60,751 nucleotides of DNA from a virus. Positions 13,052 through 39,442 of this stretch are shown piece by piece. The position numbers and the translations under genes are program-made. The notes under the pieces are model-generated. The model did not search any database. It saw nothing but the letters and a program-made list of their open reading frames with translations, and had not been told where the DNA came from. Within the stretch, counting starts at the first letter, position 1. Each line of letters starts with the position of its first letter. Location of the stretch: IMG/VR virus record IMGVR_UViG_3300047552_001108, positions 1-60,751 of that record, one strand, 5' to 3'.

Positions 13052-13080
13052 AGTATGTCATGGCCGTGATAGCGATGCAA
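13052..13080 (-). promoter_or_regulatory. Promoter of the exonuclease-to-integrase operon
   Basis: On the minus strand, -35 TTGCAT (13075-13080), a 17-bp spacer, then -10 CATACT (13052-13057). The 16-bp operator 13056-13071 fills the spacer, so a bound regulator would exclude RNA polymerase. The DUF932 promoter at 21560-21588 has the same geometry. Confidence 0.65.
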
Positions 13081-13145
13081 GCTAAATGCTCAGTGTGGTG
13101 ATATTTCCTCCGTCAGAAGTTACATTCTGGTGATACCGCGTGATA
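13056..13145. promoter_or_regulatory. Operator array of the recombination operon (sites at 13056, 13088, 13120, 13130)
   Basis: 16-bp sites whose right halves read CCGTGATA (13064-13071), TGGTGATA (13096-13103), TGGTGATA (13128-13135) and GCGTGATA (13138-13145). The first three start exactly 32 bp apart, about three helical turns. Only the first has a good left half (TGTCAT). GTGATAC is repeated directly at 13130 and 13140. Confidence 0.65.
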
Positions 13146-13148
13146 CTC

Positions 13149-13799
13149 TCAAGCCTGGGTGATCGAAAGCACCGGATGCGCCTCTACCACCTCGACGTTT
13201 TCCATCGGAGCGGCTCCCCAAGACAGCAGCGTGAACAGGCCTGCGGTCGATCCACGTCGAATCTCGCGCACGAGCGGCTGGGTTGCCCCGCGCACGCGCA
13301 CTACGCACAACTTGCCAAGAAGTTCATCAGGCGGCTTTGCTTCCGCCGAGAAGAACAACAGCCAATCAGCAGGGATAGGATGCAAACCATCGCCATCGAT
13401 GCGGGCTGCAACAGCGTCGACGCCTTGCGGCAGGCCAACTGGCCGGTCCACCGTGACGTTCTCATCCATCGGAAACAACCTTCCATAGATGCCCACGAGC
13501 CACCGCAGCGCGACTGCGCCTTTCCCCGTGGTTTGAGAGGCGCTCACGTCCTTCTTCCGCGCCTGGGGCGCGGCACGCCCGCCCACCAACTCATCGACGG
13601 ACACACCAGCCGCTCTTGCCAGCCTTTGCAGGCTGTCGTAGGTCAGGCTGTGAGAACGCCCCGCGATGAAGTTGTAGATGGTGCTGCTTCGAAGGCCTGC
13701 GGCCTTCGCCCAGGGATGGGGCTTGAGGCCCCGTGCGTCCATGAACGCTTGCAAAGCGTCCCGGGACACGACGCCCGGGGAGGCGTCTTTGATCGTCAT
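13149..13799 (-). CDS. CI-like repressor (XRE HTH plus degenerate S24/LexA-like domain)
   Basis: 216 residues from ATG 13799, RBS AAAGGAG. HTH at ~residues 15-60 (W-A-K-A-A-G-L-R-S-S-T-I-Y-N-F). The C-terminal domain (~125-216) has the S24-like order ARIDGDG-L, D-E-L-L-G-K-L-C-V-V-R-V, and a final P-V-L-S-I. The position of the catalytic serine in GDS is glycine (G138), and I see no clear partner lysine. It is therefore probably not self-cleaving, so prophage induction would not depend on RecA-stimulated autolysis (inference). Divergent to 13865. Best candidate for binding the TRTCAY-N4-GTGAYA operators. An immunity region with a repressor next to recombination genes is typical of temperate phages. 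Confidence 0.8.
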   Translation of the reverse strand: MTIKDASPGVVSRDALQAFMDARGLKPHPWAKAAGLRSSTIYNFIAGRSHSLTYDSLQRLARAAGVSVDELVGGRAAPQARKKDVSASQTTGKGAVALRWLVGIYGRLFPMDENVTVDRPVGLPQGVDAVAARIDGDGLHPIPADWLLFFSAEAKPPDELLGKLCVVRVRGATQPLVREIRRGSTAGLFTLLSWGAAPMENVEVVEAHPVLSITQA

Positions 13800-13864
13800 G
13801 ATATGCGCTTCTCCTTTTGTCGAATTGGCCGCTCATCGTCGGCTTATGTTTTGTCCAACGTCGC

Positions 13865-14194
13865 ATGAAATACCCAGTCAGCAAGTACAACGCGGTCCCC
13901 ACTGTGGTGGACAACATCCGTTTTGCCTCCAAGCGTGAAGCGAACCGCTACTACGAACTTAAGGTGCTGCAGAAGGCCGGTGAAATCACGGACCTAAAGT
14001 GCCAGCCGCGCTTCCCGCTGGTGGTGCGCGGCACGAAGATCTGCACCTACGTGGCCGACTTCTCGTACCGGAACAAGTCCGGCGAACTGGTCGTGGAGGA
14101 TGTGAAAAGCAAACCTACCATGACCCCGGCCTTCCGCCTCAAGGCAAAGCTACTACAAGCCGTCGAGGGGATCACCGTCAGCGTGGTGATGTGA
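13865..14194 (+). CDS. DUF1064 protein (putative endonuclease)
   Basis: 109 residues from ATG 13865; no Shine-Dalgarno is visible, so it may be leaderless. It carries the DUF1064 pattern F-A-S-K-x-E-A-x-R-(Y/W)-x-E-L, L-Q-x-A-G-E-I-x-D-L-x-x-Q-P-(R/x)-F-x-L, Y-x-A-D-F-x-Y and E-D-V-K-S-K. This is a PD-(D/E)XK-like arrangement, with D in ADF and E-x-V-K as metal ligand and lysine. Related phage proteins act on branched DNA. First rightward gene after the repressor. Confidence 0.8.
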   Translation: MKYPVSKYNAVPTVVDNIRFASKREANRYYELKVLQKAGEITDLKCQPRFPLVVRGTKICTYVADFSYRNKSGELVVEDVKSKPTMTPAFRLKAKLLQAVEGITVSVVM

Positions 14195-14228
14195 CGCAGA
14201 TTTTCGGCGCGACCGGACCGCGCATCTC

Positions 14229-14273
14229 TTGCCTTCTCATCGGGACGGCCCTTATCCTGTCATTGCCGTGACA
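14229..14273 (+). promoter_or_regulatory. Promoter and operator of the replication operon
   Basis: -35 TTGCCT (14229-14234), an 18-bp spacer, and -10 TATCCT (14253-14258). A 16-bp operator TGTCATTGCCGTGACA (14258-14273) begins on the last base of the -10. The same -10/operator junction occurs at 24577 and 39390. It drives the structured leader and the YdaU gene. Confidence 0.6.
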
Positions 14274-14326
14274 ATGGCGCAGTCCCCGGGGTCGGTTTGC
14301 ACGCCGCCTCCGGGTGAAGCAACGAA

Positions 14327-14414
14327 GGTGTCCTTCGGTGAGGGGGACCGGGAGCCGTAAGGCCCGGACCCCCGCACCTTCCCGGGGGGTGCATCCCCCT
14401 CACCGAAGGGCACC
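14327..14414 (+). ncRNA. Structured leader RNA of the replication gene
   Basis: Two 21-base arms (14327-14347 and 14394-14414) pair with a single mismatch. They enclose two smaller helices: CCGGG 14348-14352 with CCCGG 14363-14367, and GCACC 14374-14378 with GGTGC 14388-14392. The result is a closed three-way junction ending 14 bases before the ATG of the YdaU gene. It could be a cis-acting translation or transcription control element, or an origin-related structure. No known riboswitch class recognised. Confidence 0.55.
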
Positions 14415-14428
14415 GAGGAAGGAAGCGA

Positions 14429-15232
14429 ATGCACCACTACCCCTTTCACATCGGCGACTACGTCGCCCACACCCGGCACCTTTCGCCGATTGAAGACCTC
14501 GCGTACCGGAGGTTGCTCGACGCCTACTATCTGCGCGAAGGTCCGCTGCCGAATGAGGTCGCCACCACCGCCCGCCTGATCGGCCTGCGCGACAACATTC
14601 CCGAGGTCGAGGCGGTGCTGCGCGAGTTTTTCGAGAGCACGCCGGATGGCTGGTTCAATGCCAGGGCCGAGCAGGAAATCGAGGCATACAGGGCCAAGCA
14701 CGAACAGGCGTCACGCGCCGGTAAAGCGTCCGCTGAACGTCGGGCCAGCAAGCGTGCAACTCCCGATGAAGGCGTGTTGAACGCCGGTTCAACGGATGTT
14801 CAACGACCGTTGAACGGACGTGCAACCAACCAGAACCAGAACCAGAACCAGAACCAAGAACCATCTCCCCCCAAGCCCCCCAAGGGGTCCGAGTTGTTCG
14901 ACGAGTTCTGGTCGGCCTATCCACGCAAGGTCGGCAAGGACGCCGCTCTCAAGGCGTTTGAGAAACGGAAGCCCGACCGGGAACTGTTGGGCCGGATGCT
15001 GACCGCCGTCGCGCTGCAGAAGCAGTCGCCAGGGTGGCTCAAGGACGGTGGCGAGTACATCCCGCACCCGGCCACTTGGCTGAACCAGGGCCGGTGGCAA
15101 GACGAGGCCCAGGCGGTGCCCGACCGGATGGCCGGATGGTCGTCGTATGCCCGCGAGCAGGCGTTGCGGCTGTTCCCTGACGGCAACATCCCGGCCGGCT
15201 ATGTGCCGTCAGGTAGCCCCGCAGGAGGTTGA
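14429..15232 (+). CDS. YdaU/DUF1376-type replication protein
   Basis: 267 residues, RBS AGGAAGGAAG. The N-terminal 80 residues match DUF1376: (F/Y)-H-I-G-D-Y, H-L-S-x-x-E-D-x-A-Y-R-R-L-L-D-x-Y-Y, P-L-P. The middle is a linker with N-Q repeats (~residues 133-143). The C-terminal 100 residues resemble the helicase-loader end of lambda O / DnaT-like proteins (F-D-E-F-W-x-A-Y-P-R-K-V-G-K ... Y-I-P-H-P-A-T-W-L-N). Expected to recognise the phage origin and recruit the helicase. First gene of the primase-helicase operon. Confidence 0.85.
   Translation: MHHYPFHIGDYVAHTRHLSPIEDLAYRRLLDAYYLREGPLPNEVATTARLIGLRDNIPEVEAVLREFFESTPDGWFNARAEQEIEAYRAKHEQASRAGKASAERRASKRATPDEGVLNAGSTDVQRPLNGRATNQNQNQNQNQEPSPPKPPKGSELFDEFWSAYPRKVGKDAALKAFEKRKPDRELLGRMLTAVALQKQSPGWLKDGGEYIPHPATWLNQGRWQDEAQAVPDRMAGWSSYAREQALRLFPDGNIPAGYVPSGSPAGG
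14824..14862 (+). repeat. AACCAG hexamer repeats inside the replication gene
   Basis: Four perfect AACCAG units (14828-14851) with imperfect units on both sides, encoding the alternating N-Q linker. Lambda-type phages place origin iterons inside the initiator gene, so this is a candidate origin. A plain low-complexity linker is the alternative. Confidence 0.5.
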
Positions 15233-15234
15233 GC

Positions 15235-15579
15235 GTGGAACTCGAATCGAAGCTGCGCGAGCACGGCATCGAGGCACGCAGAATGTCCCCGGGCAACCAG
15301 TACACGGTTTGCCCTCAGTGTTCGCCGACCCGCAAGGCGGCGAATCGTAAGAAGCCCTGCTTGTCGCTGGCGATTGGCCCGTGCCAGTTGGCGAACGGTG
15401 GGCACGTAGAAGACGGTGGGGCGGTGTGGCACTGCTCCCATTGCGGTTGGTCTGGAGGTTTGAAGCAGCATGGAAACGCAGTTGTCGGTGGCGCTCACCA
15501 AGGCGCTGGAAGATCGGGGTTTGGACGTGGAAATTTGCGCCCGAATGGGCCTCCACGTTTCGCCAAACGGTGGTGGTAA
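15235..15579 (+). CDS. Zinc-ribbon primase-type protein
   Basis: 114 residues from GTG 15235; GGAGG lies 6 bases upstream, and a TTG at 15229 is less well placed. C26-x2-C29 and C67-x2-C70 form a zinc ribbon like the N-terminal finger of T7 gp4-type primases (residues ~20-75). From about residue 79 it overlaps the next gene by 110 bases in another frame, and that tail has no domain character. The finger is normally fused to the TOPRIM/helicase that follows; here the two are separate or joined by frameshifting. Confidence 0.75.
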   Translation: MELESKLREHGIEARRMSPGNQYTVCPQCSPTRKAANRKKPCLSLAIGPCQLANGGHVEDGGAVWHCSHCGWSGGLKQHGNAVVGGAHQGAGRSGFGRGNLRPNGPPRFAKRWW

Positions 15580-16921
15580 CGTCCTGGCGATCCCGTACTT
15601 CCGGGATGGGGTGGTGGTGCGGCACAAGTTCCGCACGCTGACCGGCGACAAGAAGTTCTGGCAAGACGAGGGCGGGGTGAAGTGCCTCTGGAACGAGGAC
15701 TGCCTGCGCGATGACACCCTGGTGCAGATGCCGCTGATCATCACCGAGGGCGAGATGGACGCCCTGGCCGTGATCCAGGCCGGATTCATGCGCGTGGTGT
15801 CGGTGCCGGATGGGGCGCCCAAGGAGTCGATCACCGACCCGAACACGATCAAGTACTCCTACCTTGAGGGCGTCGTTCGGCCCCTGCTGGTGAAGGATCG
15901 CGTTCCCGAGATCATCCTGGCCGTCGACGGTGACGAGCCGGGTGCCAACCTGCTGCACGACCTGTCGGTGCGCCTGGGTCGCGCCCGGTGCAAGTTCGTG
16001 ACGTACCCCAAGCACCCGGAAAACCGCAACGTGCGGCTCAAGGACTTGAACGAGGTGCTGCAGCACTACGGGCCAAAGGGCGTGCAGGAGACGCTATCCC
16101 GGGCGCAGTGGCTGCGAGTGGACGGCGTGTACCGCATGAGCGAGTTGCCGCCGGTTCCGCCCTCGACGGTCTACGAGATCAACCTGCGTGGGATGGAGCA
16201 GCACTACAAGGTCCGCCTCGGGGATCTCGCGGTCTGGACGGGGATTCCTTCTCATGGGAAGTCGTCCCTGGTGAACGACGTGTGTTGCCGGCTTGCCTAC
16301 CACCACGGCATCGCCATCGCGTTTGCCTCATTTGAGCAGGCGCCGCAGCGCGATCACAAGCGCAACCTGCGGACGTGGTTCATGGGAAAGCCGACGAACC
16401 ACGCAGAAGAAACCGATCTGCGAAAGGCCGACGCATGGATCGACAAGCACTTTGCGTTCATGGTGCCCAGCGAGGACGACGACGTGTCGCTCGATTGGGT
16501 GTTGGACCGGATGGAGGCCGCCGTCGTCCAGTTCAATTGCAAGGTGATCGTCATCGACCCGTGGAACGAGATGGACCACGCTCGGGCGCCGGGTGAAAGC
16601 CTGACTGAGTACACGGGCCGCGCCATCAAGGCACTGAAGAGGTTTGCCAAGGCGTTTGACGTCCATGTAATCGTGGTGGCTCACCCGGCCAAGCAGCAGA
16701 AGGACGAGAAGGGCGAGTACCGCGTGCCGACGCTCTACGACATCAGCGACAGCGCCCACTGGTACAACAAGTGCGACCTGGGTGTCATCGTGCACAGGTT
16801 CGCGGACTATTCCCTGATCAAGGTCGCCAAGAGTCGCTACCACGACGAAATCGGCGTGCCTGGGGAGGTGAAGGCCACTTTCAAGTTCGAGGAACGCAAG
16901 TTCGAGTGCTGGGTCGTATAG
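15470..16921 (+). CDS. TOPRIM / DnaB-like primase-helicase
   Basis: 483 residues, with GGAGG 11 bases before the ATG. TOPRIM domain ~85-185: E93 in I-T-E-G-E, D153 and D155 in A-V-D-G-D. RecA-fold helicase ~245-475: Walker A G258-x4-G-K264-S265, Walker B I-V-I-D363. This is the T7 gp4 order without the zinc finger, which is encoded just upstream. It unwinds the fork and may prime. A strong terminator lies 43 bases downstream. Confidence 0.9.
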   Translation: METQLSVALTKALEDRGLDVEICARMGLHVSPNGGGNVLAIPYFRDGVVVRHKFRTLTGDKKFWQDEGGVKCLWNEDCLRDDTLVQMPLIITEGEMDALAVIQAGFMRVVSVPDGAPKESITDPNTIKYSYLEGVVRPLLVKDRVPEIILAVDGDEPGANLLHDLSVRLGRARCKFVTYPKHPENRNVRLKDLNEVLQHYGPKGVQETLSRAQWLRVDGVYRMSELPPVPPSTVYEINLRGMEQHYKVRLGDLAVWTGIPSHGKSSLVNDVCCRLAYHHGIAIAFASFEQAPQRDHKRNLRTWFMGKPTNHAEETDLRKADAWIDKHFAFMVPSEDDDVSLDWVLDRMEAAVVQFNCKVIVIDPWNEMDHARAPGESLTEYTGRAIKALKRFAKAFDVHVIVVAHPAKQQKDEKGEYRVPTLYDISDSAHWYNKCDLGVIVHRFADYSLIKVAKSRYHDEIGVPGEVKATFKFEERKFECWVV

Positions 16922-16963
16922 GATTCGGCCACCGGCGCTGCCGGTTCCTTAGACGGTTGATTT

Positions 16964-16990
16964 CCCCGGCCTCGTGCCGGGGTTTCTTTT
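16964..16990 (+). terminator. Intrinsic terminator of the replication operon
   Basis: Stem CCCCGGC / GCCGGGG with loop CTCGT, followed by TTTCTTTT. Confidence 0.85.
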
Positions 16991-20065: not shown

Positions 20066-20344
20066 TCACTTCTCCTTGCTTACGTCGACCAGCGGGCCGA
20101 ACTCTTCTTCATGTTTGCGCCGCACGTCCTCTGGCACCGGGCCGATCACATGCTGCTTTTCCGCTGCCCAGACCAGACGCGCACCTGGGAACTGCTTTCG
20201 CATTTCGTCGGCAAACGCTGTCATCTCTGGGAAGCTCTCGCGGACCTTCTTGCGCAGCGCCTCTCGGCGCCGCTCCTTCTCTTCCTCGGCGCGACGACGC
20301 TCGTCGTGAGCATCGTCGAACACCGGCTTGGGGTACTGCTTCAA
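20066..20344 (-). CDS. Hypothetical phage protein with a TTG start
   Basis: 92 residues. I take TTG 20344 because it overlaps the TGA of the DUF932 gene (TTGA) and has GGTGAAGG upstream; no ATG lies near. The highly charged helical N-terminal half (E-R-R-R-A-E-E-E-K-E-R-R-R-E) is followed by a compact C-terminal part ending G-P-L-V-D-V-S. Unrecognised. Confidence 0.55.
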   Translation of the reverse strand: MKQYPKPVFDDAHDERRRAEEEKERRREALRKKVRESFPEMTAFADEMRKQFPGARLVWAAEKQHVIGPVPEDVRRKHEEEFGPLVDVSKEK

Positions 20345-21501
20345 GCCTTCACCTTGTCGAGCATCCGGCCGGCGATCTGCTCCATGGCGATCCGGGCCTC
20401 TTGGTATTCCTCGGCCCGCGCCGCTGCTGTGATGCCCTGCGCGAAGTCCCACACCGAGGTGGGCAGGTGGCCTTCTTCCGCCTCGACCGTGGTGATGATC
20501 CGCTTGGCTGCCCGTTCGCTGAAACCGTAGCGGCTCAGGAAGTCCAGGCGATCCTCGTCGTTCTTGGCGACGATGGCGCCCTTGGCTGCCTGCACCCCCG
20601 CGATCAGCTTGGTCGTGCCGGCGTCGGAGAACAGTTCGAGGGCCGGGATCGCCTGTTCGATGAAGCGGTCGGGTGCCGATGCCGTGTGCTTGAAGGTCAA
20701 CTCGCTGAAGCCCTCCACCCCCCAAAGATTCCGGTTCTGGCAGACGCCGCGCAGGTACATCGACGCGAATCCGAAGGTCTTGCTGCCGACCTCGCTGTTC
20801 CAAACGTAGAAGCCCCGGAACATCAGGTCCGGGCTGCCGTCGTCCAACTTGCCCACCTCAATGGGGTTGCGGTCGTCGACCAAGAAAAGGAACACGTCGC
20901 GGTCGCTCGCGTACAGGGTGGTGTTCTGTTTGGTGATGTCGACGTTCGGGTTGTAGGTCACCCCGAACTCGCTGCGCCAGTCGATGCACCCGGGCACCTT
21001 CCACCGCGTGTCGCCTGTGCCGTTTCCGGCGATCCTGCGCACCGCCTCCACCACATCGCGGTCGAGGATGCGGCCGTACCGGGTGCTGGTGATGCCGCGA
21101 AGCGTGGTGGTGCCGTTCTGCCGGATGTAGGCGCTGACCTCCTTGGGGTCGGCGGTCTTGAGGCCGTAGTTCAGGTTCACCGCTGCCAGGGGCGCCGGCA
21201 GGCTGCGCATGTAGTTCGAGGGGGCGCTTGCTGCGCGGCAGATCGTGTCGAAGGACCAATGCGTCGGCACCACCTCCGCGCCAGCCACCTGCAGCCGCAG
21301 CGTGTCGTGGTCTTCGCCGTCGTAGAGCACCTCGATATCGGCCGGCAGGACGTTAACCGCGCTGCTTTCGTCGGCCCAGGTGGTGACCTGCTCGTGCAGG
21401 GCCGAGAGGCTGGTGAACTTCTGGTCGTCCGGGCGTGAGGCCCATTGGGCGCTGACCGTGCCGATGCACTGGCCCTTGGAAACGTCGATCTTGTGGGTCA
21501 T
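20341..21501 (-). CDS. DUF932 domain protein
   Basis: 386 residues from ATG 21501, RBS AAGGAG. It matches phage/plasmid DUF932 proteins: W-S-F-D-T-I-C-R, P-A-x-Y-M-R-S-L-P, G-I-T-S-T-R-Y-G-R-I-L-D, D-R-D-V-F-L-F-L-V-D, F-x-G-F-Y-V-W-N-S-E-V-G, and M-Y-L-R-G-V-C-Q-N-R-N-L-W. Function is not established. First gene of the leftward accessory block, with its promoter and operators 60 bases upstream. Confidence 0.85.
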   Translation of the reverse strand: MTHKIDVSKGQCIGTVSAQWASRPDDQKFTSLSALHEQVTTWADESSAVNVLPADIEVLYDGEDHDTLRLQVAGAEVVPTHWSFDTICRAASAPSNYMRSLPAPLAAVNLNYGLKTADPKEVSAYIRQNGTTTLRGITSTRYGRILDRDVVEAVRRIAGNGTGDTRWKVPGCIDWRSEFGVTYNPNVDITKQNTTLYASDRDVFLFLVDDRNPIEVGKLDDGSPDLMFRGFYVWNSEVGSKTFGFASMYLRGVCQNRNLWGVEGFSELTFKHTASAPDRFIEQAIPALELFSDAGTTKLIAGVQAAKGAIVAKNDEDRLDFLSRYGFSERAAKRIITTVEAEEGHLPTSVWDFAQGITAAARAEEYQEARIAMEQIAGRMLDKVKA

Positions 21502-21559: not shown

Positions 21560-21588
21560 AGTATTGTCACAGTCGTGATACTTTGCAA
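21560..21588 (-). promoter_or_regulatory. Promoter of the DUF932 block with operator in the spacer
   Basis: On the minus strand, -35 TTGCAA (21583-21588), a 17-bp spacer, -10 AATACT (21560-21565). The operator TGTCACAGTCGTGATA (21565-21580) occupies the spacer. Confidence 0.65.
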
Positions 21589-21684
21589 GCGGTTTCTACG
21601 TTTCAGACGGAAAAAATCGCATCACGGTGACACTTGGGCCTTGTGCGGGGCCTGCCAGCGCGGGACAATCACATCAGCGTGATG
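21565..21684. promoter_or_regulatory. Operators between DUF932 and ParB/methyltransferase
   Basis: Three sites in the 289-bp divergent intergenic region start at 21565, 21617 and 21669, exactly 52 bp apart. The first is a good inverted repeat. The second and third keep the right half (GTGACA at 21627-21632, GTGATG at 21679-21684). TTTCAGACGGAAA at 21601-21613 is a second conserved element. No gene is visible in 21502-21790. Confidence 0.6.
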
Positions 21685-21790: not shown

Positions 21791-23119
21791 ATGAGCAAGC
21801 TGCAGATCGAGTACCGCGAAACCGCCAGTCTCATTCCTTACGCGAGGAACAGCCGAACGCACTCCGACCAACAGGTCGCGCAGATCGCGGCCAGCATCAA
21901 GGAGTTCGGGTTCACCAACCCGATCCTGCTCGGCGACGACGGGGTTCTCATCGCCGGCCACGGCCGTCTGCAGGCCGCGCAGAAGCTTTCGATGGAGCAG
22001 GTGCCCACCATCACCCTGGTTGGCCTGACTGAAGCGCAGCGCCGCGCCCTGGTGATCGCCGACAATCGCATCGCGGAAAACAGCGGGTGGGATTTGGACA
22101 TGCTGCGCGTCGAGTTGGGCGACCTTCAGGTGGCCGAGTTCGACATGTCGCTCCTGGGGTTCGGCGCCGACGAACTGCAGAACCTCTTGGCCCCGACGGG
22201 CATCGAGGGCAACACCGACCCCGACGAGGCCCCGGCCGTGCCGGACCAGCCCGTCTCAGTGCTCGGCGATGTGTGGGTTCTTGGCAAGCACCGGGTGATG
22301 TGCGGTGACAGTCTGTCTGTGGACGCTGTCACGACGCTGATGGGGGGCGCCCTGGCCGACGTTCTCATCACCGACCCGCCGTACAACGTCGCCTACGAGG
22401 GCAAGACGAAGGACGCGCTGAAGATCCAGAATGACTCGATGGACGACGAGTCCTTCCGCCAGTTCTTGCGCGATGCGTTCGTGGCCGCCGACACGGTGAT
22501 GAAGCCGGGGGCGGTGTTCTACATCTGGCACGCCGACAGCGAAGGCTACAACTTCCGTGGCGCCTGCCGCGACGCCGGCTGGAAGGTCCGCCAGTGTCTC
22601 GTGTGGGAGAAGGATTCGATGGTGATGGGCCGCCAGGACTATCACTGGAAGCACGAGCCTTGCCTGTACGGGTGGAAGGACGGCGCCGGCCACCTGTGGG
22701 CCGCTGACCGCAAGCAGACCACGCTTCTGAAGTTCGACCGGCCGAAGCGGAACGACGTCCACCCCACGATGAAGCCCGTGGCGCTCATCGAGTACCAACT
22801 GCTGAACAACACCAAGGGAGGCGACGTTGTCCTCGACCTGTTCGGCGGCTCGGGCACCACGCTGATCGCGGCCGAGAAGAACGGGCGCTACGCCCGCCTG
22901 ATGGAACTGGACCCGAAGTACGTCGACGTCATCGTCACCCGGTGGCAGGCGTTTTCGGGCCTGCACGCGCACCTTGAGTCCGACGGGCGCACGTTCACCG
23001 AGGTCATGGGCGAACGCGCCCCGGGCAAACTGGTGGGCAACGAGGTGGGCAACGTCGACAAGGCCGACGCCAAAAAGGCGAAGAAGGCCAAGCCTGCGAA
23101 GGTCAGTTCAGCGGAATGA
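21791..23119 (+). CDS. ParB-like nuclease domain fused to a DNA adenine methyltransferase
   Basis: 442 residues. Residues 1-95 are ParB/Srx-like (L-I-P-Y-x-x-N-S-R, I-x-E-F-G-F-x-N-P-I, I-A-G-H-G-R-L-x-A-A). Residues ~155-395 are a methyltransferase with D195-P-P-Y198 before the SAM-binding F351-G-G-S-G-T-T357, i.e. beta-class order, usually N6-adenine or N4-cytosine. The tail is Lys/Ala-rich. It is an orphan enzyme, with no restriction partner here. Likely roles are protection against host restriction or regulation. Convergent with 23103, sharing 17 bases. Confidence 0.9.
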   Translation: MSKLQIEYRETASLIPYARNSRTHSDQQVAQIAASIKEFGFTNPILLGDDGVLIAGHGRLQAAQKLSMEQVPTITLVGLTEAQRRALVIADNRIAENSGWDLDMLRVELGDLQVAEFDMSLLGFGADELQNLLAPTGIEGNTDPDEAPAVPDQPVSVLGDVWVLGKHRVMCGDSLSVDAVTTLMGGALADVLITDPPYNVAYEGKTKDALKIQNDSMDDESFRQFLRDAFVAADTVMKPGAVFYIWHADSEGYNFRGACRDAGWKVRQCLVWEKDSMVMGRQDYHWKHEPCLYGWKDGAGHLWAADRKQTTLLKFDRPKRNDVHPTMKPVALIEYQLLNNTKGGDVVLDLFGGSGTTLIAAEKNGRYARLMELDPKYVDVIVTRWQAFSGLHAHLESDGRTFTEVMGERAPGKLVGNEVGNVDKADAKKAKKAKPAKVSSAE

Positions 23120-24561: not shown

Positions 24562-24629
24562 TGTTACGATGGTGACACTGTTGCTCCATTTCGGACGGAA
24601 AGCAAGCGAAATGTGTCACCGGAGTGATA
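24562..24629. promoter_or_regulatory. Operator pair between the 24.5-kb block and terminase
   Basis: TGTTACGATGGTGACA (24562-24577) and TGTCACCGGAGTGATA (24614-24629), starts exactly 52 bp apart as at 39375/39427. The right site covers the GGAG Shine-Dalgarno of the terminase small subunit. TTTCGGACGGAAA (24589-24601) lies between them. Confidence 0.7.
24577..24605 (-). promoter_or_regulatory. Leftward promoter of the 23.1-24.5 kb block
   Basis: -35 TTGCTT (24600-24605), 17-bp spacer, -10 AACAGT (24577-24582) on the minus strand. The operator starts on the last base of the -10. Near copy of the promoter at 39390-39418. Confidence 0.6.
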
Positions 24630-24632
24630 TTC

Positions 24633-25109
24633 ATGCCAAGTAAGCGAGAACCCAAAGTGGCCGGGGCGACCGTGTCCCCGCCGCCGGCCGTTCCCCCACG
24701 CATTAAAAGTCGACGGGCGAACGGCACCCAGGCGCCTCATGTGCCGACGGACCTTTCGCGCCGCACGGTGCAGCTGGGGATGTTCATCGGCTACACGCAC
24801 GAGCAGATCGCCCGCCTGATCGAGGTGGACGAAAAGACGCTGCGGGCGCACTACCCGGACGAGTTGGCGCGGGGTGCCGAGAAGATCGGGCAGGCGGTGG
24901 CCGGCAACCTTGTGAACATCGCTCTGCAGACGCAGGACCGGAAGGCGGCGCTGACGGCCGCGATCTTCATCTGCAAGACGCGCCTGCAGTGGCGTCAGGC
25001 TGATGCGTTCAGCGCGGAGGCAGAGGCCAAGATTAAGCGGGCAGAGGACGGCGAGGAAACCGTGACGGTCACGCTCAAGATCGGAGACCGCGAAACCACC
25101 GACGACTGA
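24633..25109 (+). CDS. terS: Terminase small subunit
   Basis: 158 residues from ATG 24633, with GGAG 8 bases upstream inside an operator; a GTG at 24624 is in frame but lies within the operator. The N-terminal 35 residues are basic and Pro-rich. Residues ~45-80 form an HTH (V-Q-L-G-M-F-I-G-Y-T-H-E-Q-I-A-R-L-I-E-V-D-E-K-T-L). A helical oligomerisation part and an acidic tail follow. It recognises pac/cos DNA and hands it to TerL, whose start overlaps its stop by one base. Confidence 0.8.
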   Translation: MPSKREPKVAGATVSPPPAVPPRIKSRRANGTQAPHVPTDLSRRTVQLGMFIGYTHEQIARLIEVDEKTLRAHYPDELARGAEKIGQAVAGNLVNIALQTQDRKAALTAAIFICKTRLQWRQADAFSAEAEAKIKRAEDGEETVTVTLKIGDRETTDD

Positions 25110-26371
25110 TGCACATCGTCTACGAGCGGCCCTGGTTGTACCCCGCGCAGCAGAAGGCCATCTTCGACGCAGTCGACTACGCGGGGGAACTGGCCCGCTA
25201 CGCGATCATCGAGGCCTCGACGAAGGCCGGCAAGACCGTCGGCTGTATGGCGTGGCTGACCGAGCAGGCGTTCGTTCACGGCAAGCCGGGGCGCAACTAC
25301 TGGTGGGTGGCCCCGGTGTATCCCCAGGCCAAGATCGCGTTCCGGCGGATCAAGCGCGGCTTGCCGAAGGCCGTCTACGTCGCCAACGAGACCGAACTGA
25401 CCATCACCCTGGCGAACGGCTCGGTGATGTGGTTCAAGTCCGCCGAGAAGCCCGACAACCTCTACGGTGAGGACGTCTACGCCGCCGTGGTGGACGAGGC
25501 CAGCCGGTGCCGCGAGGACTCGTGGATCGCCGTGCGTTCGACGCTGACGGCCACCCGGGGCAAGGTCCGCATCATCGGGAACGTCAAGGGCCGCACCAAC
25601 TGGCACTACCAGATGGCCCGCAAGGCCGAGGCCGGCGCCCCAGGCATGGCCTACGCCAAGCTGACCGCCTACGACGCGGTGGCAGGCGGCGTGCTGGACG
25701 CCAAGGAGATCGAGGACGCCAAGAGCCTCCTGCCGGAGAAGGTGTTCCGCGAGTTGTACCTCGCCGAGCCATCCGACGACGAGGGCAACCCCTTTGGCCT
25801 GAAGTACATCGACGCCTGCCTGCAGCCGCTCTCCGACGGCGTGCCGGTCGCCATCGGCGTGGACCTCGCCAAGTCCACCGACTGGTGCGTGGTGGTCGCC
25901 CTGGACCGCGACGGGCGCGTCTGCGGCTTCGACCGATGGCAGGGGCCGTGGGAAACCACCGAGACTCGAATCCTCAATCTCATCGGCCGGTGCCCGAGTC
26001 TCATCGACTCCACGGGCGTCGGCGACCCCATCGTCGAGCGCCTGCAGAAAAAACGCCGGAATGTCACGGGTTACACTTTCTCATCGTCGAGCAAGCAGAA
26101 GCTCATGGAGGGGTTGGCGGTTGCCATCCAGACCGGCGCGGTTGGGTTCCCAGACGGCCCAATCAAGTCGGAACTGCAGTTGTTCGAGTACCAGTACACC
26201 CGCACGGGCGTGAAGTACTCGGCTCCTGACGGCTACCACGATGACTGCGTGATGGCCCTGGCCCTGGCAGTGGAGCAATACCGGCTGGTCAACCCGTTTG
26301 TGCGCAACGCGAAGCCCGGTGGCGGTTCACGCATCAGTCCGTGGCTTGGCGCGATGGCAGGAGATGAATGA
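25109..26371 (+). CDS. terL: Terminase large subunit
   Basis: 420 residues. ATPase: atypical Walker A S37-T-K-A-G-K-T43, Walker B V-V-D129-E130. RNase H-like nuclease: D252 (G-V-D-L-A-K-S), D300 (L-I-D-S-T-G-V-G-D), D378/D379 (Y-H-D-D-C-V-M-A-L-A-L-A). It powers DNA packaging through the portal and cuts the concatemer. Immediately followed by the portal gene with overlapping stop and start. Confidence 0.93.
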   Translation: MHIVYERPWLYPAQQKAIFDAVDYAGELARYAIIEASTKAGKTVGCMAWLTEQAFVHGKPGRNYWWVAPVYPQAKIAFRRIKRGLPKAVYVANETELTITLANGSVMWFKSAEKPDNLYGEDVYAAVVDEASRCREDSWIAVRSTLTATRGKVRIIGNVKGRTNWHYQMARKAEAGAPGMAYAKLTAYDAVAGGVLDAKEIEDAKSLLPEKVFRELYLAEPSDDEGNPFGLKYIDACLQPLSDGVPVAIGVDLAKSTDWCVVVALDRDGRVCGFDRWQGPWETTETRILNLIGRCPSLIDSTGVGDPIVERLQKKRRNVTGYTFSSSSKQKLMEGLAVAIQTGAVGFPDGPIKSELQLFEYQYTRTGVKYSAPDGYHDDCVMALALAVEQYRLVNPFVRNAKPGGGSRISPWLGAMAGDE

Positions 26372-34996: not shown

Positions 34997-35532
34997 TGCA
35001 GCAGCAGTCGAAGCAGCGGTTCAACCCCCGCGTAAAGATCGCCGCGCTCTCCCTGAGCGCCGTTGCGTTCGTCGCCACAGCCGTTCACGAGGGCTACACC
35101 GACGAGGCCGTGATCCCGGTCAAGGGTGACGTGCCGACCTTCGGCTTCGGCATGACGACGCACTCCGACGGAACCCGGGTGCAGATGGGCGACCGGACCG
35201 ACCCCGTGTCTGCACTCAAGCGCAAGCTGGAGTACGTGCAGCAGGCCGAGGGCCGCATAAAGCAGTGCGTGACCGCGCCGGTCAGTCAGACAGAGTTCGA
35301 CCTGTTGATGGATTTCTCGTACCAGTACGGGACGGGCGCCCTGTGCCGCAGCAGCATCGTCCGACACACCAATGCAGAGCGGTATGCGGATGCCTGCAAG
35401 GCGTATCTCGAGTATCGATTCGTGGCCGGCTACGACTGCTCGACCCTGGTGGGCGGCAAGCCCAACAAGCGGTGCTGGGGCGTGTGGACGCGCCAGCAAG
35501 AGCGCCACCAGAAGTGCATGGGGCAGCTGTGA
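34996..35532 (+). CDS. Endolysin, GH24 lysozyme with N-terminal signal anchor
   Basis: 178 residues. Residues ~13-30 are a weakly hydrophobic, Ala/Ser-rich segment, typical of signal-anchor-release endolysins. Active-site glutamate E32 in H-E-G-Y, followed by D45 and T48 in G-D-V-P-T-F-G-F-G. The Glu-to-Asp gap is longer than in T4 lysozyme, a known variant. It cleaves the glycan strand of murein in the periplasm. Start chosen at ATG overlapping the holin stop; the GTG just before is also open. Confidence 0.88.
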   Translation: MQQQSKQRFNPRVKIAALSLSAVAFVATAVHEGYTDEAVIPVKGDVPTFGFGMTTHSDGTRVQMGDRTDPVSALKRKLEYVQQAEGRIKQCVTAPVSQTEFDLLMDFSYQYGTGALCRSSIVRHTNAERYADACKAYLEYRFVAGYDCSTLVGGKPNKRCWGVWTRQQERHQKCMGQL

Positions 35533-35969
35533 TTCAAGCCACGTTGATTGCCGTGGCCGCTGCAGGCGTGATCGGCCTCGCTGCCGGTGGCACCGCTGCC
35601 TGGAAGTACCAGGGCCATCGCTACGAACGCGAAATCGCCGAGATGCGTGCCCAGGCTGAAGCTGCCGCACGCGAACAGGAGAAGCTGCATGAAGACCGGA
35701 TTCGACAGGCTTACCGTGAAGCGACGAATCGGGAGCGCCGCGCTCGCATGGACGCTGCTGCTGCTCGTGATGCTGCTGACCGGCTGCGCGACGACCTCGC
35801 CGTTGCCGTCCAGGCAGCCCGAGATACCCCAGCCTCCTGCCCTGACCGAGCCGCTGCCCTCGCTGACGTACTCCGAGCAGTGGAAACTGAAGGTCGAGGA
35901 CTGGCGGAAACGTGCGACCGGCACGTCAACGACCTCCGCACCTTGATGCAGGCGTGGCCGGGTAAGTGA
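35529..35969 (+). CDS. Rz: Inner-membrane spanin Rz
   Basis: 146 residues from GTG 35529, overlapping the endolysin stop by 4 bases. One N-terminal transmembrane helix (~residues 4-24) is followed by a long charged alpha-helical periplasmic domain (E-I-A-E-M-R-A-Q-A-E-A-A-A). It contains the complete Rz1 gene in another frame, the classic nested spanin arrangement. With Rz1 it fuses inner and outer membranes at lysis. Confidence 0.85.
   Translation: MIQATLIAVAAAGVIGLAAGGTAAWKYQGHRYEREIAEMRAQAEAAAREQEKLHEDRIRQAYREATNRERRARMDAAAARDAADRLRDDLAVAVQAARDTPASCPDRAAALADVLRAVETEGRGLAETCDRHVNDLRTLMQAWPGK
35689..35946 (+). CDS. Rz1: Outer-membrane spanin Rz1 (lipoprotein)
   Basis: 85 residues, nested in Rz in the +1 frame, RBS AGGAG. 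Signal peptide (residues ~10-31) ending in a lipobox L-L-T-G-C with the lipidated cysteine at 32. The mature part is Pro-rich (Q-P-E-I-P-Q-P-P-A-L-T-E-P-L-P), as in Rz1 proteins. Partner of Rz. Confidence 0.85.
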   Translation: MKTGFDRLTVKRRIGSAALAWTLLLLVMLLTGCATTSPLPSRQPEIPQPPALTEPLPSLTYSEQWKLKVEDWRKRATGTSTTSAP

Positions 35970-35977
35970 ACCCGGCC
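35956..35977. terminator. Hairpin between convergent Rz and the leftward block
   Basis: Perfect 7-bp stem GGCCGGG / CCCGGCC with an 8-base loop, overlapping the stop codons of both convergent genes. No U-tract, so efficiency is uncertain. Confidence 0.5.
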
Positions 35978-36141
35978 TACAGAAAGATCGCTGCGCCCGT
36001 GCAGCCGATCATCGCCAGGGAAAACACCCAGGCGAACGCACGCAGCCAACGCGGCGGATCGTAGGGCTCGGCGGGCAGACCGCACGCTTCCGGGGTGGGG
36101 CAGGTGATGCGCCCTTGATTGCAGGGTCCAGTGCAAGACAT
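35977..36141 (-). CDS. Small Cys-rich membrane protein
   Basis: 54 residues with a strong RBS (AGGAGG). N-terminus M-S-C-T-G-P-C-N-Q-G-R with four cysteines in 20 residues, then P-Y-D-P-P-R-W-L, then one hydrophobic helix (~residues 35-54). This is a common layout of tiny phage membrane proteins. Last gene of the leftward 36-39 kb block. Function unknown. Confidence 0.7.
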   Translation of the reverse strand: MSCTGPCNQGRITCPTPEACGLPAEPYDPPRWLRAFAWVFSLAMIGCTGAAIFL

Positions 36142-36150
36142 CGCTTCCTC

Positions 36151-36414
36151 CTATCGGCCGCCCTGCAGCCGCTCGATGGTGATGTTCAGAGCGCCGAGTT
36201 CGTCCAGTTTGTGAACTGACCAGATCCGGGCCTGCCCGTGGATGCCGTTGAAGCTGCCCTGGTGGCAGTCTTTGCACAGCGCCACCACGGTGTAGTGCAG
36301 GCCCTGCTTGATGTGATGCGCGTCGCTCGGCGCAGGCGCATCGCAGACCGAACAAGGCAGCAGCTTGACCCGCTGAACGTGATCGCGCTCGGCCTTGGTG
36401 TACTTCCCGTTCAT
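36151..36414 (-). CDS. HNH-like nuclease (Ref-type)
   Basis: 87 residues. C-S-V-C then A-H-H-I-K-Q-G and C-K-D-C-H-Q-G, followed by N-G-I-H-G. This is the HNH core with a structural zinc site, like P1 Ref C-terminal and NinG-related phage endonucleases. A role in recombination or DNA processing is probable. Only the nuclease core is present, so the protein is at the short end of the family. Confidence 0.75.
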   Translation of the reverse strand: MNGKYTKAERDHVQRVKLLPCSVCDAPAPSDAHHIKQGLHYTVVALCKDCHQGSFNGIHGQARIWSVHKLDELGALNITIERLQGGR

Positions 36415-36424
36415 GCGTCTGATT

Positions 36425-36733
36425 CTATGCAGGGGTCTTGCTCTCGAACGGCTCCTTGTCGGGAAACCACTCGCTGCGTGAGCGCACGTTGTCGACGGTG
36501 CCGGCCTCGCAGCACACGGTGACGGTGTGGACGTCCCTGTGGACGCCCGGGATGCCCCAGAACTCGTAGGCGCCGATGCCGTAGTCCACCGTGGTCAGTT
36601 CCGCCGGTTGGCCGCAGGCCTCGCAAAGCACATCGTCGTGCCACGCTTTGCAGTCACCACCACCCATACGGTGCGGGAAGCGGTACGACGAGCAGTGGCA
36701 GACGTGCTGCATCTGCTTGCGTTGGTGGTTCAT
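36425..36733 (-). CDS. Cysteine-rich phage protein
   Basis: 102 residues from ATG 36733. Cysteines as C-H-C, L-C-E-A-C-G-Q-P and C-C: a zinc-ribbon-like N-terminal half, then Y-E-F-W-G-(I/x)-P-G-x-H-x-D. Conserved small phage family, function unknown. TGATG-coupled to the upstream gene. Confidence 0.6.
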   Translation of the reverse strand: MNHQRKQMQHVCHCSSYRFPHRMGGGDCKAWHDDVLCEACGQPAELTTVDYGIGAYEFWGIPGVHRDVHTVTVCCEAGTVDNVRSRSEWFPDKEPFESKTPA

Positions 36734-37083
36734 GCCGGCTCCCCCTGGTCCTCGACGTCGGCGAGGTAGATCGCATCGGTGACGCACAGCACGCTGGCGC
36801 CCGGTGTGCGCTCGATGTAGGCGTTGGCCTGGGCCATGCCGTCCTCCGTGTTCTTGAACACCGCCATGCAGCGGTAGCGCCGGCCCTGGTGGCGCACCAT
36901 GGGCGCGTCGTAGTTCACCCCGGGCGTGCCGTACAGGCTCACCAGTTCCTTTGGGTCGAGCCGACCGGCTTCTTCCGCCGCGCAGGGCGGGCAGATGCTG
37001 TAGCCGGTGTCCCGATTCCAGTGCTGCTGCCACCGGCCCGCGTAAGCCCCGCAGACGCAGCAGTTCATGTGGTGTTGGGTCAT
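36730..37083 (-). CDS. Zinc-ribbon phage protein
   Basis: 117 residues from ATG 37083. C-C-V-C-G near the start and C-P-P-C at ~residue 31 make a four-cysteine zinc site. The C-terminal half has V-F-K-N-T-E-D-G-M-A-Q-A-N-A-Y-I-E-R-T-P-G, a small conserved domain in phages. Possibly nucleic-acid binding; not established. Confidence 0.6.
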   Translation of the reverse strand: MTQHHMNCCVCGAYAGRWQQHWNRDTGYSICPPCAAEEAGRLDPKELVSLYGTPGVNYDAPMVRHQGRRYRCMAVFKNTEDGMAQANAYIERTPGASVLCVTDAIYLADVEDQGEPA

Positions 37084-37268
37084 TTCTTCTCCTTGCAGTG
37101 GATGCACCCACAGGGGATGCCGAGGCGGCGTTGCACGCGGCCGATGCTCCAGGCGTCGTCAGCGGCTCTTCGGCTCACACGGCTCTCCACCATCAGCCGC
37201 ACGCGAGTGGCTTGATCGTCGTGATATCCGGCGATGCGGATGTGTGCGAGGACGTCAGCACGCTTCAT
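37080..37268 (-). CDS. Hypothetical small phage protein
   Basis: 62 residues from ATG 37268. Basic, helical, ending C-G-C-I-H-C-K-E-K-K, which may bind metal. Unrecognised. Overlaps both neighbours by 4 bases. Confidence 0.5.
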   Translation of the reverse strand: MKRADVLAHIRIAGYHDDQATRVRLMVESRVSRRAADDAWSIGRVQRRLGIPCGCIHCKEKK

Positions 37269-37597
37269 CCTGCAGCCCCCCGTGGTCCTGCCTTGTGGTG
37301 CGCAAGGAACTCCATACGGTTGGAAAACACTGTCGCGTGGTCGGCTGGCAGGCGGTGTTCCTCTGGCTGCCACTTGCATGTGTTGCGTCGGTAGATGGCT
37401 AACCCGGCGCAGCGGCTGCCTTCGTGGACGTGGCACTCCACTACTTCGTCCGAGTGGCAGAGGTTGGCGTACTGCTCTGGTGTTGCGCCGCCAAGCCACC
37501 CAGCCAGCGCGTCACGCCGCATCGGACAGTCATTGCACGGCTTGGAAAGTTGCTTAGTGGCTGGTGTGGCCTCTCCTCTGGCGATCAGCTTTCTCAT
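37265..37597 (-). CDS. DUF6283-like cysteine-motif protein
   Basis: 110 residues from ATG 37597. C-N-D-C-P-M-R-R-D, then W-L-G-G-x-T-P-E-Q-Y, V-x-E-C-H-V, and C-A-G-L-A-I-Y-R-R-N. Four conserved cysteines in C-x2-C ... C-H ... C order, as in DUF6283-type proteins. A metal or Fe-S site is plausible. Role unknown. Confidence 0.65.
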   Translation of the reverse strand: MRKLIARGEATPATKQLSKPCNDCPMRRDALAGWLGGATPEQYANLCHSDEVVECHVHEGSRCAGLAIYRRNTCKWQPEEHRLPADHATVFSNRMEFLAHHKAGPRGAAG

Positions 37598-37746
37598 ACA
37601 GCCCCCCTGACGGCCACAATCGCCGCCGAAATGCCGATGCAGGCGCAGCACACCACGACAGTGATAATCCACATGGCTGCCGTCCTGCGTTGATCGTGCC
37701 GTCGGGCACGCTCGATGTCGGCCCAGGTCTGCTTGTACTGGTTCAT
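37594..37746 (-). CDS. Small single-pass membrane protein
   Basis: 50 residues. A polar N-terminus (Y-K-Q-T-W-A-D-I-E-R-A-R-R) is followed by one hydrophobic helix with two adjacent cysteines. Unrecognised. Confidence 0.5.
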   Translation of the reverse strand: MNQYKQTWADIERARRHDQRRTAAMWIITVVVCCACIGISAAIVAVRGAV

Positions 37747-38114
37747 TCCATCACCTCCGGCCGACCAGCCAGCCCGCAATAGCCTCGGCGGCGCGAATTG
37801 ACCAGGGCCTCGCTTTCAACCCAGCAGGCATCGCGGTCCTCGTCGGCAGGAACAAACTCCATGCCTGGGTTCATCCCTGCGGGGCGGTCCGGCTCGATTT
37901 TGGCCAACGGGTCATTGCAGACCACTCTGACGACGTACAAGGGCGGCCCCCACCATCGCCACATTGCGCACACGTTTGCGCGGCAGTTCGCCGTTTTGCC
38001 GGTGCGGTTGTACGTGACTCCAGTGAGCGCTCCGTCCCCAATGCCGTGGCCTGTGATGTGGGGCAGGCGGCTCATGGGGCACCACAGTTTGTTTGCTTGT
38101 TCGGGGGTGTGCAT
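37743..38114 (-). CDS. Conserved phage protein
   Basis: 123 residues from ATG 38114 (TGATG overlap). It contains K-L-W-C-P-M-S-R near the start, C-R-A-N-V-C-A-M-W-R-W-W in the middle, and a C-terminal R-R-G-Y-C-G-L-A-G. Five cysteines suggest metal binding. A recognisable but uncharacterised phage family. Confidence 0.6.
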   Translation of the reverse strand: MHTPEQANKLWCPMSRLPHITGHGIGDGALTGVTYNRTGKTANCRANVCAMWRWWGPPLYVVRVVCNDPLAKIEPDRPAGMNPGMEFVPADEDRDACWVESEALVNSRRRGYCGLAGRPEVME

Positions 38115-38329
38115 CACGCCGACACCTCCGTGAAAGTGCAGAAGCTGCGTCGCACGGTGACCGTTTCGCCTGCCTCGCGCTCGTTGTAGTCGAGCATGGC
38201 CTGGGCCTTGCCATCGGTGATGAGAACGTCCGCCCAGGTGTCATCCACACGTTTCAGGACGCCCGTGAAGATGCCCTTGCGGCTGCTGTTGACGCGGTAC
38301 GTCGCGCCGATTCGAAGTTCTGTGGTCAT
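38114..38329 (-). CDS. Hypothetical beta-barrel-like phage protein
   Basis: 71 residues, with short strands (L-R-I-G-A-T-Y-R-V-N, G-V-L-K-R-V-D-D-T-W-A-D-V-L-I) resembling a small SH3-like barrel. No family assigned. Confidence 0.5.
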   Translation of the reverse strand: MTTELRIGATYRVNSSRKGIFTGVLKRVDDTWADVLITDGKAQAMLDYNEREAGETVTVRRSFCTFTEVSA

Positions 38330-38336
38330 GGTGGTA

Positions 38337-38552
38337 TCAGCGGTACAGGGTGACGATGTGGCCGAAGTGCTTGTCGAAGGTGGCGACCAGATGCTCGTAG
38401 TCGCCTGCCTTCATCTCGTCGACGATGTTTTTGTCGTCCAGGCCGAGTTCACGCGCCAACCTCTGCGCGGTTCCAAGCAGCACGAAGGCGTTGCCATCCG
38501 GGCCAGTCAGGTCGATCTCGATGCCGCGCTGCGGCTTGCGCTTGATGACCAT
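38337..38552 (-). CDS. Conserved phage protein
   Basis: 71 residues from ATG 38552. The I-D-L-T-G-P-D-G-N-A-F-V-L-L-G core, then R-E-L-G-L-D, G-D-Y-E-H-L-V-x-x-F-D-x-x-F-G, is a well-conserved small phage family in many Proteobacteria viruses. Function unknown. Confidence 0.7.
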   Translation of the reverse strand: MVIKRKPQRGIEIDLTGPDGNAFVLLGTAQRLARELGLDDKNIVDEMKAGDYEHLVATFDKHFGHIVTLYR

Positions 38553-38740
38553 CACTGCCCCCTTGCGCGTTGCAAGCACGCAAGTCGGGCATCGCCGTCC
38601 AGCAGATAGATGCCGTTCCGCTTTTCCAGGCACCGCATCTCGGCCAGCGTTTGCGCGTCCTGGGGGCCGAACATCACCGCGTAGAACAACACGGCTGCCA
38701 GCACCAACAGCAGCAGGCTGATTCGCTTGGCGAAGCTCAT
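38552..38740 (-). CDS. Small membrane protein
   Basis: 62 residues from ATG 38740. One hydrophobic helix (~residues 6-24), then a periplasm-sized domain with two cysteines (C-L-E-K ... A-C-L). Unrecognised. Confidence 0.5.
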   Translation of the reverse strand: MSFAKRISLLLLVLAAVLFYAVMFGPQDAQTLAEMRCLEKRNGIYLLDGDARLACLQRARGQ

Positions 38741-39348
38741 CACGCGCTCCAGATCACGGTGAAATCGTCGGTCGCGCCCGAGGCCAGGACGTGCTCGATG
38801 GTCTCGATGACGATCATCAAAGCGGTCTCGTACCAATCGCGCTCGCCTTCAACGCGCTCCTGCTCGAACACCAAGAACACGCCCGGTCCCGACCACTTCT
38901 GTTCGCCAGCGATGGCCGCCTTCAACTTCGCGCCCTTGACCCAAAAGTGGCCGCTGCTGTTGCTGTAGGCCTCGAACGGCCGCTCCTTCTCGGCTTCGCT
39001 CGCAAACGCCGCCAGGGCTTCTCGTTCGCTCGCGCACTTGGCCGATGCCGAGATGAACGTGACGTAGTGGCCGCCGGCAGGCGACTTGAGGTGCATCCGG
39101 TACTGGTCCAGTGCGCTTTCGGCGCGGACCTTCGCTTCATGCCAGTTCGGCTTGAACTGGTAGGCGTCTTGCGGCGGCTGGAAGATCGCGTAGAGGTCGG
39201 GGCACCCGCAGCGCTCCATCACCGAGTTGAACCCGCTGCCGTTGTAGCTGCTGCGGAAATAGCCGACGCGGAAAACATGGCCCGGGTCGCTTTGCGGCAC
39301 GAGTTCGACGGTTTCGTTGTTGCGCTTGAGGTAGACATCGAGTCCCAT
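38740..39348 (-). CDS. Conserved phage protein, first gene of the 36-39 kb block
   Basis: 202 residues, RBS AAGGAG. It begins M-G-L-D-V-Y-L-K-R, followed by Y-F-R-S-S-Y-N-G-S-G-F-N. Helical stretches and a C-terminal W-Y-E-T-A-L-M-I-V-I-E-T-I-E segment follow. The same M-G-(L/x)-D start and R-S-S-Y-N motif occur in other phage proteins of unknown role. Its leftward promoter and operator are at 39375-39418. Confidence 0.7.
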   Translation of the reverse strand: MGLDVYLKRNNETVELVPQSDPGHVFRVGYFRSSYNGSGFNSVMERCGCPDLYAIFQPPQDAYQFKPNWHEAKVRAESALDQYRMHLKSPAGGHYVTFISASAKCASEREALAAFASEAEKERPFEAYSNSSGHFWVKGAKLKAAIAGEQKWSGPGVFLVFEQERVEGERDWYETALMIVIETIEHVLASGATDDFTVIWSA

Positions 39349-39374
39349 TTGCTTCTCCTTTGGTTGCCGGTGCG

Positions 39375-39442
39375 TATCACCGTGGTGACACTGTTACTCG
39401 GTCGGCGCCTTCTTGCAAGCTCTTTCTATCACCGCCGTGATA
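39375..39442. promoter_or_regulatory. Operator pair before the head operon
   Basis: TATCACCGTGGTGACA (39375-39390) and TATCACCGCCGTGATA (39427-39442), starts 52 bp apart. The second has both 6-base outer arms perfect (TATCAC / GTGATA). It ends 10 bases before the ATG of the head morphogenesis gene. Confidence 0.75.
39390..39418 (-). promoter_or_regulatory. Leftward promoter of the 36-39 kb block
   Basis: -35 TTGCAA (39413-39418), 17-bp spacer, -10 AACAGT (39390-39395), with the operator starting on the last -10 base. Confidence 0.6.

What the first reader, a model, noticed from the sequence alone, without database searches (positions are those of the whole stretch)
13056..39442. A phage-wide 16-bp operator, TRTCAY-N4-GTGAYA, at five control regions
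Seen: sites at 13056, 13088, 13120, 13130, 14258, 21565, 21617, 21669, 24562, 24614, 39375 and 39427. The best are TATCACCGCCGTGATA (39427, outer arms perfect), TGTCACAGTCGTGATA (21565), TGTCACCGGAGTGATA (24614) and TGTCATTGCCGTGACA (14258). They sit only in gaps before the recombination, replication, DUF932, terminase/small-gene and head/small-gene operons. Inference: one regulator, most likely the repressor at 13149, silences the whole lytic programme from distributed operators, rather than from a single immunity region as in lambda.
Basis: partly seen in the sequence, partly recalled or inferred. Interest (0 to 1): 0.85.

Follow-up and report, generated by a model that had tools for sequence, protein, structure and literature searches.

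The report
Genome-wide operator network of a phage
This virus of bacteria carries one short mirror-image DNA switch at the control points of at least five gene groups; related viruses keep the same switches even after losing the best-known candidate 'off' protein, which points to a second, smaller phage protein also working them.

Summary
A matrix trained only on one promoter (DUF932) of diverged relatives recovers, out of sample, six top sites in the window: 39427, 39375, 21565, 13056, 24614 and 14258. All six are intergenic, where about 0.25 are expected by chance. Sites 24562, 21617 and 13088 are weaker but sit at conserved spacings. Sites 13120, 13130 and 21669 are marginal.

The same palindrome recurs at the same operons in at least 11 diverged uncultured relatives. 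At the recE and DUF932 promoters it fills the -35/-10 spacer, so it is an operator that should block RNA polymerase.

The regulator assignment is only partly right. The 13149 protein (CI-like, folded like lambda-186/186 CI, apparently non-cleavable) is a good candidate. But at least 3, probably about 5, lineages have lost it, three leaving C-terminal relics, and no integrase is found in them. Their operators are intact. A second XRE protein inside the recE-recT operon (10973-11308, Cro-like) is present in all 12 relatives where it can be checked.

Best reading: a distributed CI/Cro-type operator network shared by two phage repressors, which survives repeated loss of CI. This is a new variant of a known kind (L5 stoperators, 186, lambda). 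No binding data exist.

The parts
13056..13071 (-). operator at the recE-recT promoter; -35 TTGCAT 13075-13080, -10 CATACT 13052-13057, 17-bp spacer
   Evidence: orthologous site at the recE promoter of the relatives
13088..13103 (-). upstream (half-)operator 32 bp from the recE operator; TRTCA kept at 31-34 bp in 15 of 17 genomes
13120..13145 (.). further GTGATA half-sites (13120, 13130) between repressor gene and recE; marginal
   Evidence: 9.5 bits; direct reading
14258..14273 (+). operator before the DUF1376 replication gene
21565..21580 (-). operator in the DUF932-gene promoter; -35 TTGCAA 21583-21588, -10 AATACT 21560-21565
21617..21632 (.). second operator in the DUF932/methyltransferase divergent gap, 52 bp from the first
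21669..21684 (.). weak third site a further 52 bp on; low score
   Evidence: 5.3-7.1 bits
24562..24577 (-). operator next to the -10 of the leftward small-gene promoter
   Evidence: pair spacing 50-52 bp in relatives
24614..24629 (+). operator 3 bp before the terminase small subunit start codon (24633)
39375..39390 (-). operator of the leftward small-gene promoter before 38740-39348
39427..39442 (+). operator (best palindrome) before the MuF-like head gene 39453-40577
13149..13799 (-). CI-like repressor P0001: XRE HTH plus S24-like domain without catalytic Ser/Lys; recognition helix RSST(I/L)YN kept in 9 homologs
10973..11308 (-). HTH111: second XRE regulator (Cro-like), overlapping the end of recT; S(V/M)NT(I/V/L)RWHE kept in all homologs
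11999..13018 (-). recE-like exonuclease, first gene of the operator-controlled recombination operon
11214..12002 (-). recT-like annealing protein
4464..5528 (-). tyrosine integrase (phrog_1) at the far end of the same leftward block; not found in CI-less relatives
20341..21501 (-). DUF932-like gene (phrog_1362) under operator control
24633..26371 (+). terminase small and large subunits under operator control

Best explanation
The 16-bp palindromes (consensus TATCAC-N4-GTGATA) are operators of one phage-wide repression network. At the recE and DUF932 promoters the palindrome lies in the sigma-70 spacer and runs into the -10 hexamer, so bound protein would exclude RNA polymerase (position shown, exclusion inferred). 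At the terminase and head divergent gaps two sites 52 bp apart flank the leftward promoter, and one of them lies just before the rightward start codon (shown). Two phage XRE proteins probably read the same sites, as CI and Cro do in lambda. P0001 (13149) would hold all lytic operons off in a lysogen. HTH111 (10973-11308), made from the recE-recT operon, would damp early promoters during lytic growth. P0001 appears unable to self-cleave (no Ser/Lys dyad by alignment), so induction would need an antirepressor or HTH111 competition rather than RecA-triggered cleavage (inferred). In several lineages the CI gene was deleted or truncated and no integrase is found, giving apparently virulent phages that still carry the operators and HTH111.
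For: Out-of-sample matrix test: 6 of 6 top hits intergenic, 0.25 expected. Conserved sites at orthologous promoters in at least 11 diverged lineages, with reversed-motif controls near zero. TTG -35 element 8-10 nt upstream of the palindrome in 12/12 DUF932 and 14/17 recE promoters, against about 6% expected. P0001 homologs at 48-57% identity with a conserved recognition helix. P0001 fold matches lambda-186 hybrid and 186 CI. HTH111 in 12/12 relatives found by DUF932 and sequenced through recT, P0001 in 10/12. CI relics, truncation or absence in 8 relatives that keep the recE operator at 12-23.5 bits, against 16-23.5 in CI+ phages. Integrase in 8/8 assessable CI+ lineages and 0/7 CI- (Fisher p = 1.6e-4). 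DUF932 phages and prophages without either regulator lack the motif.
Against: No binding, footprint or transcript data exist. That HTH111 reads the sites rests on co-occurrence and on operator persistence after CI loss; persistence alone could be relict, as in mycobacteriophage D29, which keeps stoperators after a deletion into its repressor gene (PMC5712189). The loci found with HTH111 contain it by construction. Motif and regulators are both clade-specific, so co-occurrence is not fully independent. P0001's own promoter has only a weak site (13788, 11.2 bits). Sequence profiles of P0001 do not match lambda CI or 186 CI significantly, and the full-length fold match is loose (TM 0.39).
Confidence: 0.66

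Rival explanations
1. P0001 alone reads the operators. CI-less relatives lost it recently and their operators are relics not yet decayed, as in mycobacteriophage D29.
For: P0001 is a CI-like repressor lying next to the recE operator cluster; three CI-less relatives still carry a C-terminal relic, so their loss is recent. D29 precedent.
Against: L087, L105, L107 and G014 have no relic but keep operators; G014 and the L105/L107 branch are diverged; HTH111 with a conserved recognition helix is present throughout.
Confidence: 0.2
2. HTH111 alone reads the phage-wide operators to time lytic expression; P0001 acts at other sites or through a protein partner.
For: HTH111 is in every assessable relative; sites persist without P0001.
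Against: P0001 has a conserved recognition helix and operators on both sides of its gene in relatives; integrase and P0001 are present or absent together, as expected if P0001 maintains lysogeny through lytic promoters.
Confidence: 0.1
3. The palindromes serve a host regulator or a non-transcriptional role, such as a site for the ParB-like methyltransferase at 21791-23119.
For: 16-bp palindromes are typical of several such systems; the ParB-like/methyltransferase gene is beside one cluster.
Against: Exact placement in -35/-10 spacers; the motif is missing from phages and prophages that share DUF932 but lack P0001 and HTH111.
Confidence: 0.04

Closest known systems
Lambda CI/Cro with OR/OL operators
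   Same: TATCAC-type half-sites in a palindrome, two XRE readers proposed, sites over promoters (lambda record with OR1-OR3)
   Different: sites are 16 not 17 bp and spread over at least five operons including terminase and head genes; spacing 32/52 bp; P0001 lacks the cleavage dyad; repressor and recE lie in tandem, with the Cro-like gene about 2 kb downstream inside the recombination operon
Mycobacteriophage L5/D29 cluster A repressor and stoperators (PMC5712189, PMC9283540)
   Same: one phage repressor with many sites across the genome; virulent derivative (D29) lost the repressor but kept the sites
   Different: L5 sites are asymmetric (13-bp, 24 in L5) and also stop elongation; here they are palindromic, mainly in promoters, and a second XRE regulator is present
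Phage 186 CI
   Same: best fold match; no counterpart of the lambda catalytic Ser in alignment; CI sites at pR, pB, FL and FR, so also distributed
   Different: no sequence-level similarity found; 186 has Apl/CII rather than an HTH111-like protein, and few sites

Membership tests
CI-type (XRE + S24) phage repressor | N-terminal Cro/C1-type HTH | tested here: met
   HTH_26 above cut-off; phrog_4/phrog_8
CI-type (XRE + S24) phage repressor | C-terminal S24/LexA-like fold | tested here: met
   AlphaFold2 plus Foldseek: lambda-186 hybrid, 186 CI, LexA, lambda CI C-domain; not found by Pfam
CI-type (XRE + S24) phage repressor | Ser-Lys self-cleavage dyad (lambda subtype) | tested here: not met
   No Ser in the GDGLHP block and Arg at the Lys position in all homologs; the distant alignment leaves some doubt
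Lambda-like CI/Cro switch | two repressors binding the same operators | not testable with these tools
   both proteins present; binding not measurable
Lambda-like CI/Cro switch | cI and cro divergent around one operator cluster | tested here: not met
   P0001 and recE in tandem, HTH111 downstream of recT
L5-type stoperator system | many asymmetric sites that stop transcription elongation | tested here: not met
   sites are palindromic and lie in promoter spacers; elongation effect not testable
Temperate phage | integrase and repressor genes | tested here: met
   phrog_1 at 4464-5528; P0001; lysogeny itself not shown

The most novel reading that the evidence does not exclude
The operator network belongs chiefly to the Cro-like HTH111, which times the lytic programme; the CI gene and integrase form a separable layer on top of it. 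The clade therefore repeatedly becomes virulent by dropping CI and integrase while keeping a fully working operator network, which would still leave these virulent phages open to repression by temperate relatives' CI.
Probability: 0.4. Interest if true: 0.72.

Novelty: new variant of a known kind. Interest (0 to 1): 0.6.

Why it matters
It describes a phage-wide repressor regulon in an uncultured clade, conserved well enough to predict targets from sequence alone. It also gives a natural series of CI-plus, CI-relic and CI-less phages sharing the same operators, so two general questions become testable: what keeps an operator network in place after the lysogeny repressor is lost, and whether temperate-to-virulent conversion leaves phages still sensitive to their relatives' immunity.

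Tried and rejected
1) Helical phasing of paired sites (32, 42, 52, 62-64, 73-74, 104 bp) as proof of cooperative looping: p = 0.02 on distinct distances, 0.12-0.20 after merging neighbours, 0.002 for DUF932 alone but chosen after the fact. Kept as a suggestion only. The 52-bp pairs may simply reflect a promoter sandwiched between two operators (about 6+6+17+6 bp).
2) The P0001 protein as a single-sequence query found no viral contigs; the alignment query did.
3) A strict DNA pattern over the whole viral collection gave no match.
4) Itty13 (repressor hit) and Mae-JY30 (closest cultured phage by DUF932) have neither the motif in the stretches read nor HTH111.
5) Bacterial genomes gave only distant DUF932 carriers (mostly alphaproteobacteria) without the motif, so host and lysogeny could not be shown.
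6) A sigma-54 reading of GGTGACACTGTTGC at 24562 was dropped: the GC element is not kept at 39375.
7) The generic promoter scan missed these promoters because the -35 is TTGC-type.

Full report
WHAT WAS CHECKED. The window is a 60.75-kb IMG/VR virus record whose last ~148 bases repeat its first ~149 apart from one base, so it is probably a complete genome (read by eye). It carries recE/recT-like genes, a primase/helicase, terminase, a MuF-like head gene, holin/endolysin and a tyrosine integrase, so it is a temperate-type tailed phage.

THE SITES ARE REAL. Pattern counts exceed shuffles (20 against 9.7 +/- 2.9 with two mismatches allowed). The stronger test trained a matrix only on the DUF932 promoters of ten relatives' sites. 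It ranks 39427, 39375, 21565, 13056, 24614 and 14258 first in the window, all fully intergenic although just 12% of the genome is; 0.25 such hits are expected. Intragenic hits begin at 13.3 bits and are few. Part of the intergenic bias could come from base composition, but not the conservation described next.

CONSERVATION. A protein scan with the DUF932-like gene found 26 related loci. Upstream of this gene about a dozen diverged relatives keep a TTG-containing -35 followed by the TRTCAC-N4-GTGATA palindrome although the rest of the upstream DNA differs. Whole contigs of the relatives hold 4-15 hits each, mostly intergenic, before the same operons: recombination, replication, DUF932/methyltransferase, terminase and head. 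Reversed-motif controls are near zero.

ANATOMY. In 12 of 12 DUF932 promoters and 14 of 17 recE promoters a TTG -35 element starts 8-10 nt before the palindrome (about 6% expected), and a -10-like hexamer overlaps its right arm at a 16-17 bp spacer. In 15 of 17 recE promoters a second TRTCA half-site lies 31-34 bp upstream; in the window this is 13088. At the terminase and head gaps two sites 50-52 bp apart flank a leftward promoter; at the terminase gap the right-hand site ends only a few bases before the rightward start codon. This is the layout of a repressor operator.

WHICH REGULATOR. Candidate 1 is P0001 (13149-13799, minus). It has an XRE domain and an S24-like domain, with best fold matches to the lambda-186 hybrid repressor and 186 CI. 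Its recognition helix RSST(I/L)YN is kept in all nine aligned homologs, which share about 50-57% identity with it. The Ser and Lys of the self-cleavage dyad are replaced in all, so it is probably not cleaved. Candidate 2 is HTH111 (10973-11308, minus), a small XRE protein overlapping the end of recT, with an S(V/M)NT(I/V/L)RWHE helix kept in every relative.

NATURAL KNOCK-OUTS. Among relatives found by DUF932 and sequenced through recT, HTH111 is present in 12 of 12 and P0001 in 10 of 12 (the 12 include the window and some near-identical contigs). In G007 the slot between DUF1064 and recE holds only a C-terminal relic of P0001; in G014 it holds nothing. An HTH111 scan added loci: L084, a relative 81-85% identical in HTH111 and recE, keeps only the last ~20 codons of P0001; L093 keeps a ~50-residue C-terminal piece; L092 an HTH-only protein; L087, L105 and L107 nothing. 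These extra loci contain HTH111 by construction. On a recE tree the gain/loss pattern needs about 5 changes (4-6 over bootstraps, at least 3 forced). The recE operator scores 12-23.5 bits in CI-less phages and 16-23.5 in CI-plus phages, against about -21 for random positions (G009's own value there is an artefact of a contig break, its recE site at 57450 scores 15.9). Counting by lineage, an integrase was found in all 8 assessable CI-plus lineages and none of 7 CI-less ones (Fisher p = 1.6e-4; lineages are not fully independent). Distant DUF932 carriers without these regulators lack the motif.

INTERPRETATION. The operators form one network. The simplest reading is a CI/Cro-like pair sharing distributed operators, with CI and integrase repeatedly lost. 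Shown: site positions, conservation, promoter overlap, gene losses. Inferred: binding by either protein, repression, and induction without cleavage. The main doubt is that retained operators after CI loss could be relics, as reported for mycobacteriophage D29, whose deletion runs into its repressor gene but whose stoperators are conserved (PMC5712189). Lineages with no CI relic and long branches make pure relict status less likely, but do not exclude it.

NOVELTY. Distributed operators are known (L5 stoperators; 186 CI sites at pR, pB, FL and FR), and sharing of operators by two repressors is known from lambda (background knowledge). New here are the palindromic promoter-spacer version reaching terminase and head genes, its conservation across an uncultured clade, the second regulator, and the series of CI-less derivatives.

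Noticed in passing
window 1-149 and 60604-60751: The contig ends repeat each other over ~148 bases with one inserted base, so the record is probably a complete genome and the large gene at 10-3333 likely continues across the junction.
   Followed up: partly
window 21791-23119: A single gene joins a ParB-like N-terminal domain to an N6/N4 DNA methyltransferase (phrog_498, PF01555) beside one operator cluster.
   Followed up: no
window 41854-46164: A 1436-residue protein shares pieces with phage genes annotated as ADP-ribosyltransferase and NUDIX hydrolase.
   Followed up: no
L054:9222-9683 (G014): The HTH111 homolog of G014 carries a second, diverged HTH copy in tandem (153 residues).
   Followed up: no
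window 24629-24633 and 39442-39453: Start codons of the terminase small subunit and the MuF-like head gene lie 3-10 nt after an operator, leaving little room for a ribosome-binding site; leaderless or operator-overlapping translation starts are possible.
   Followed up: partly
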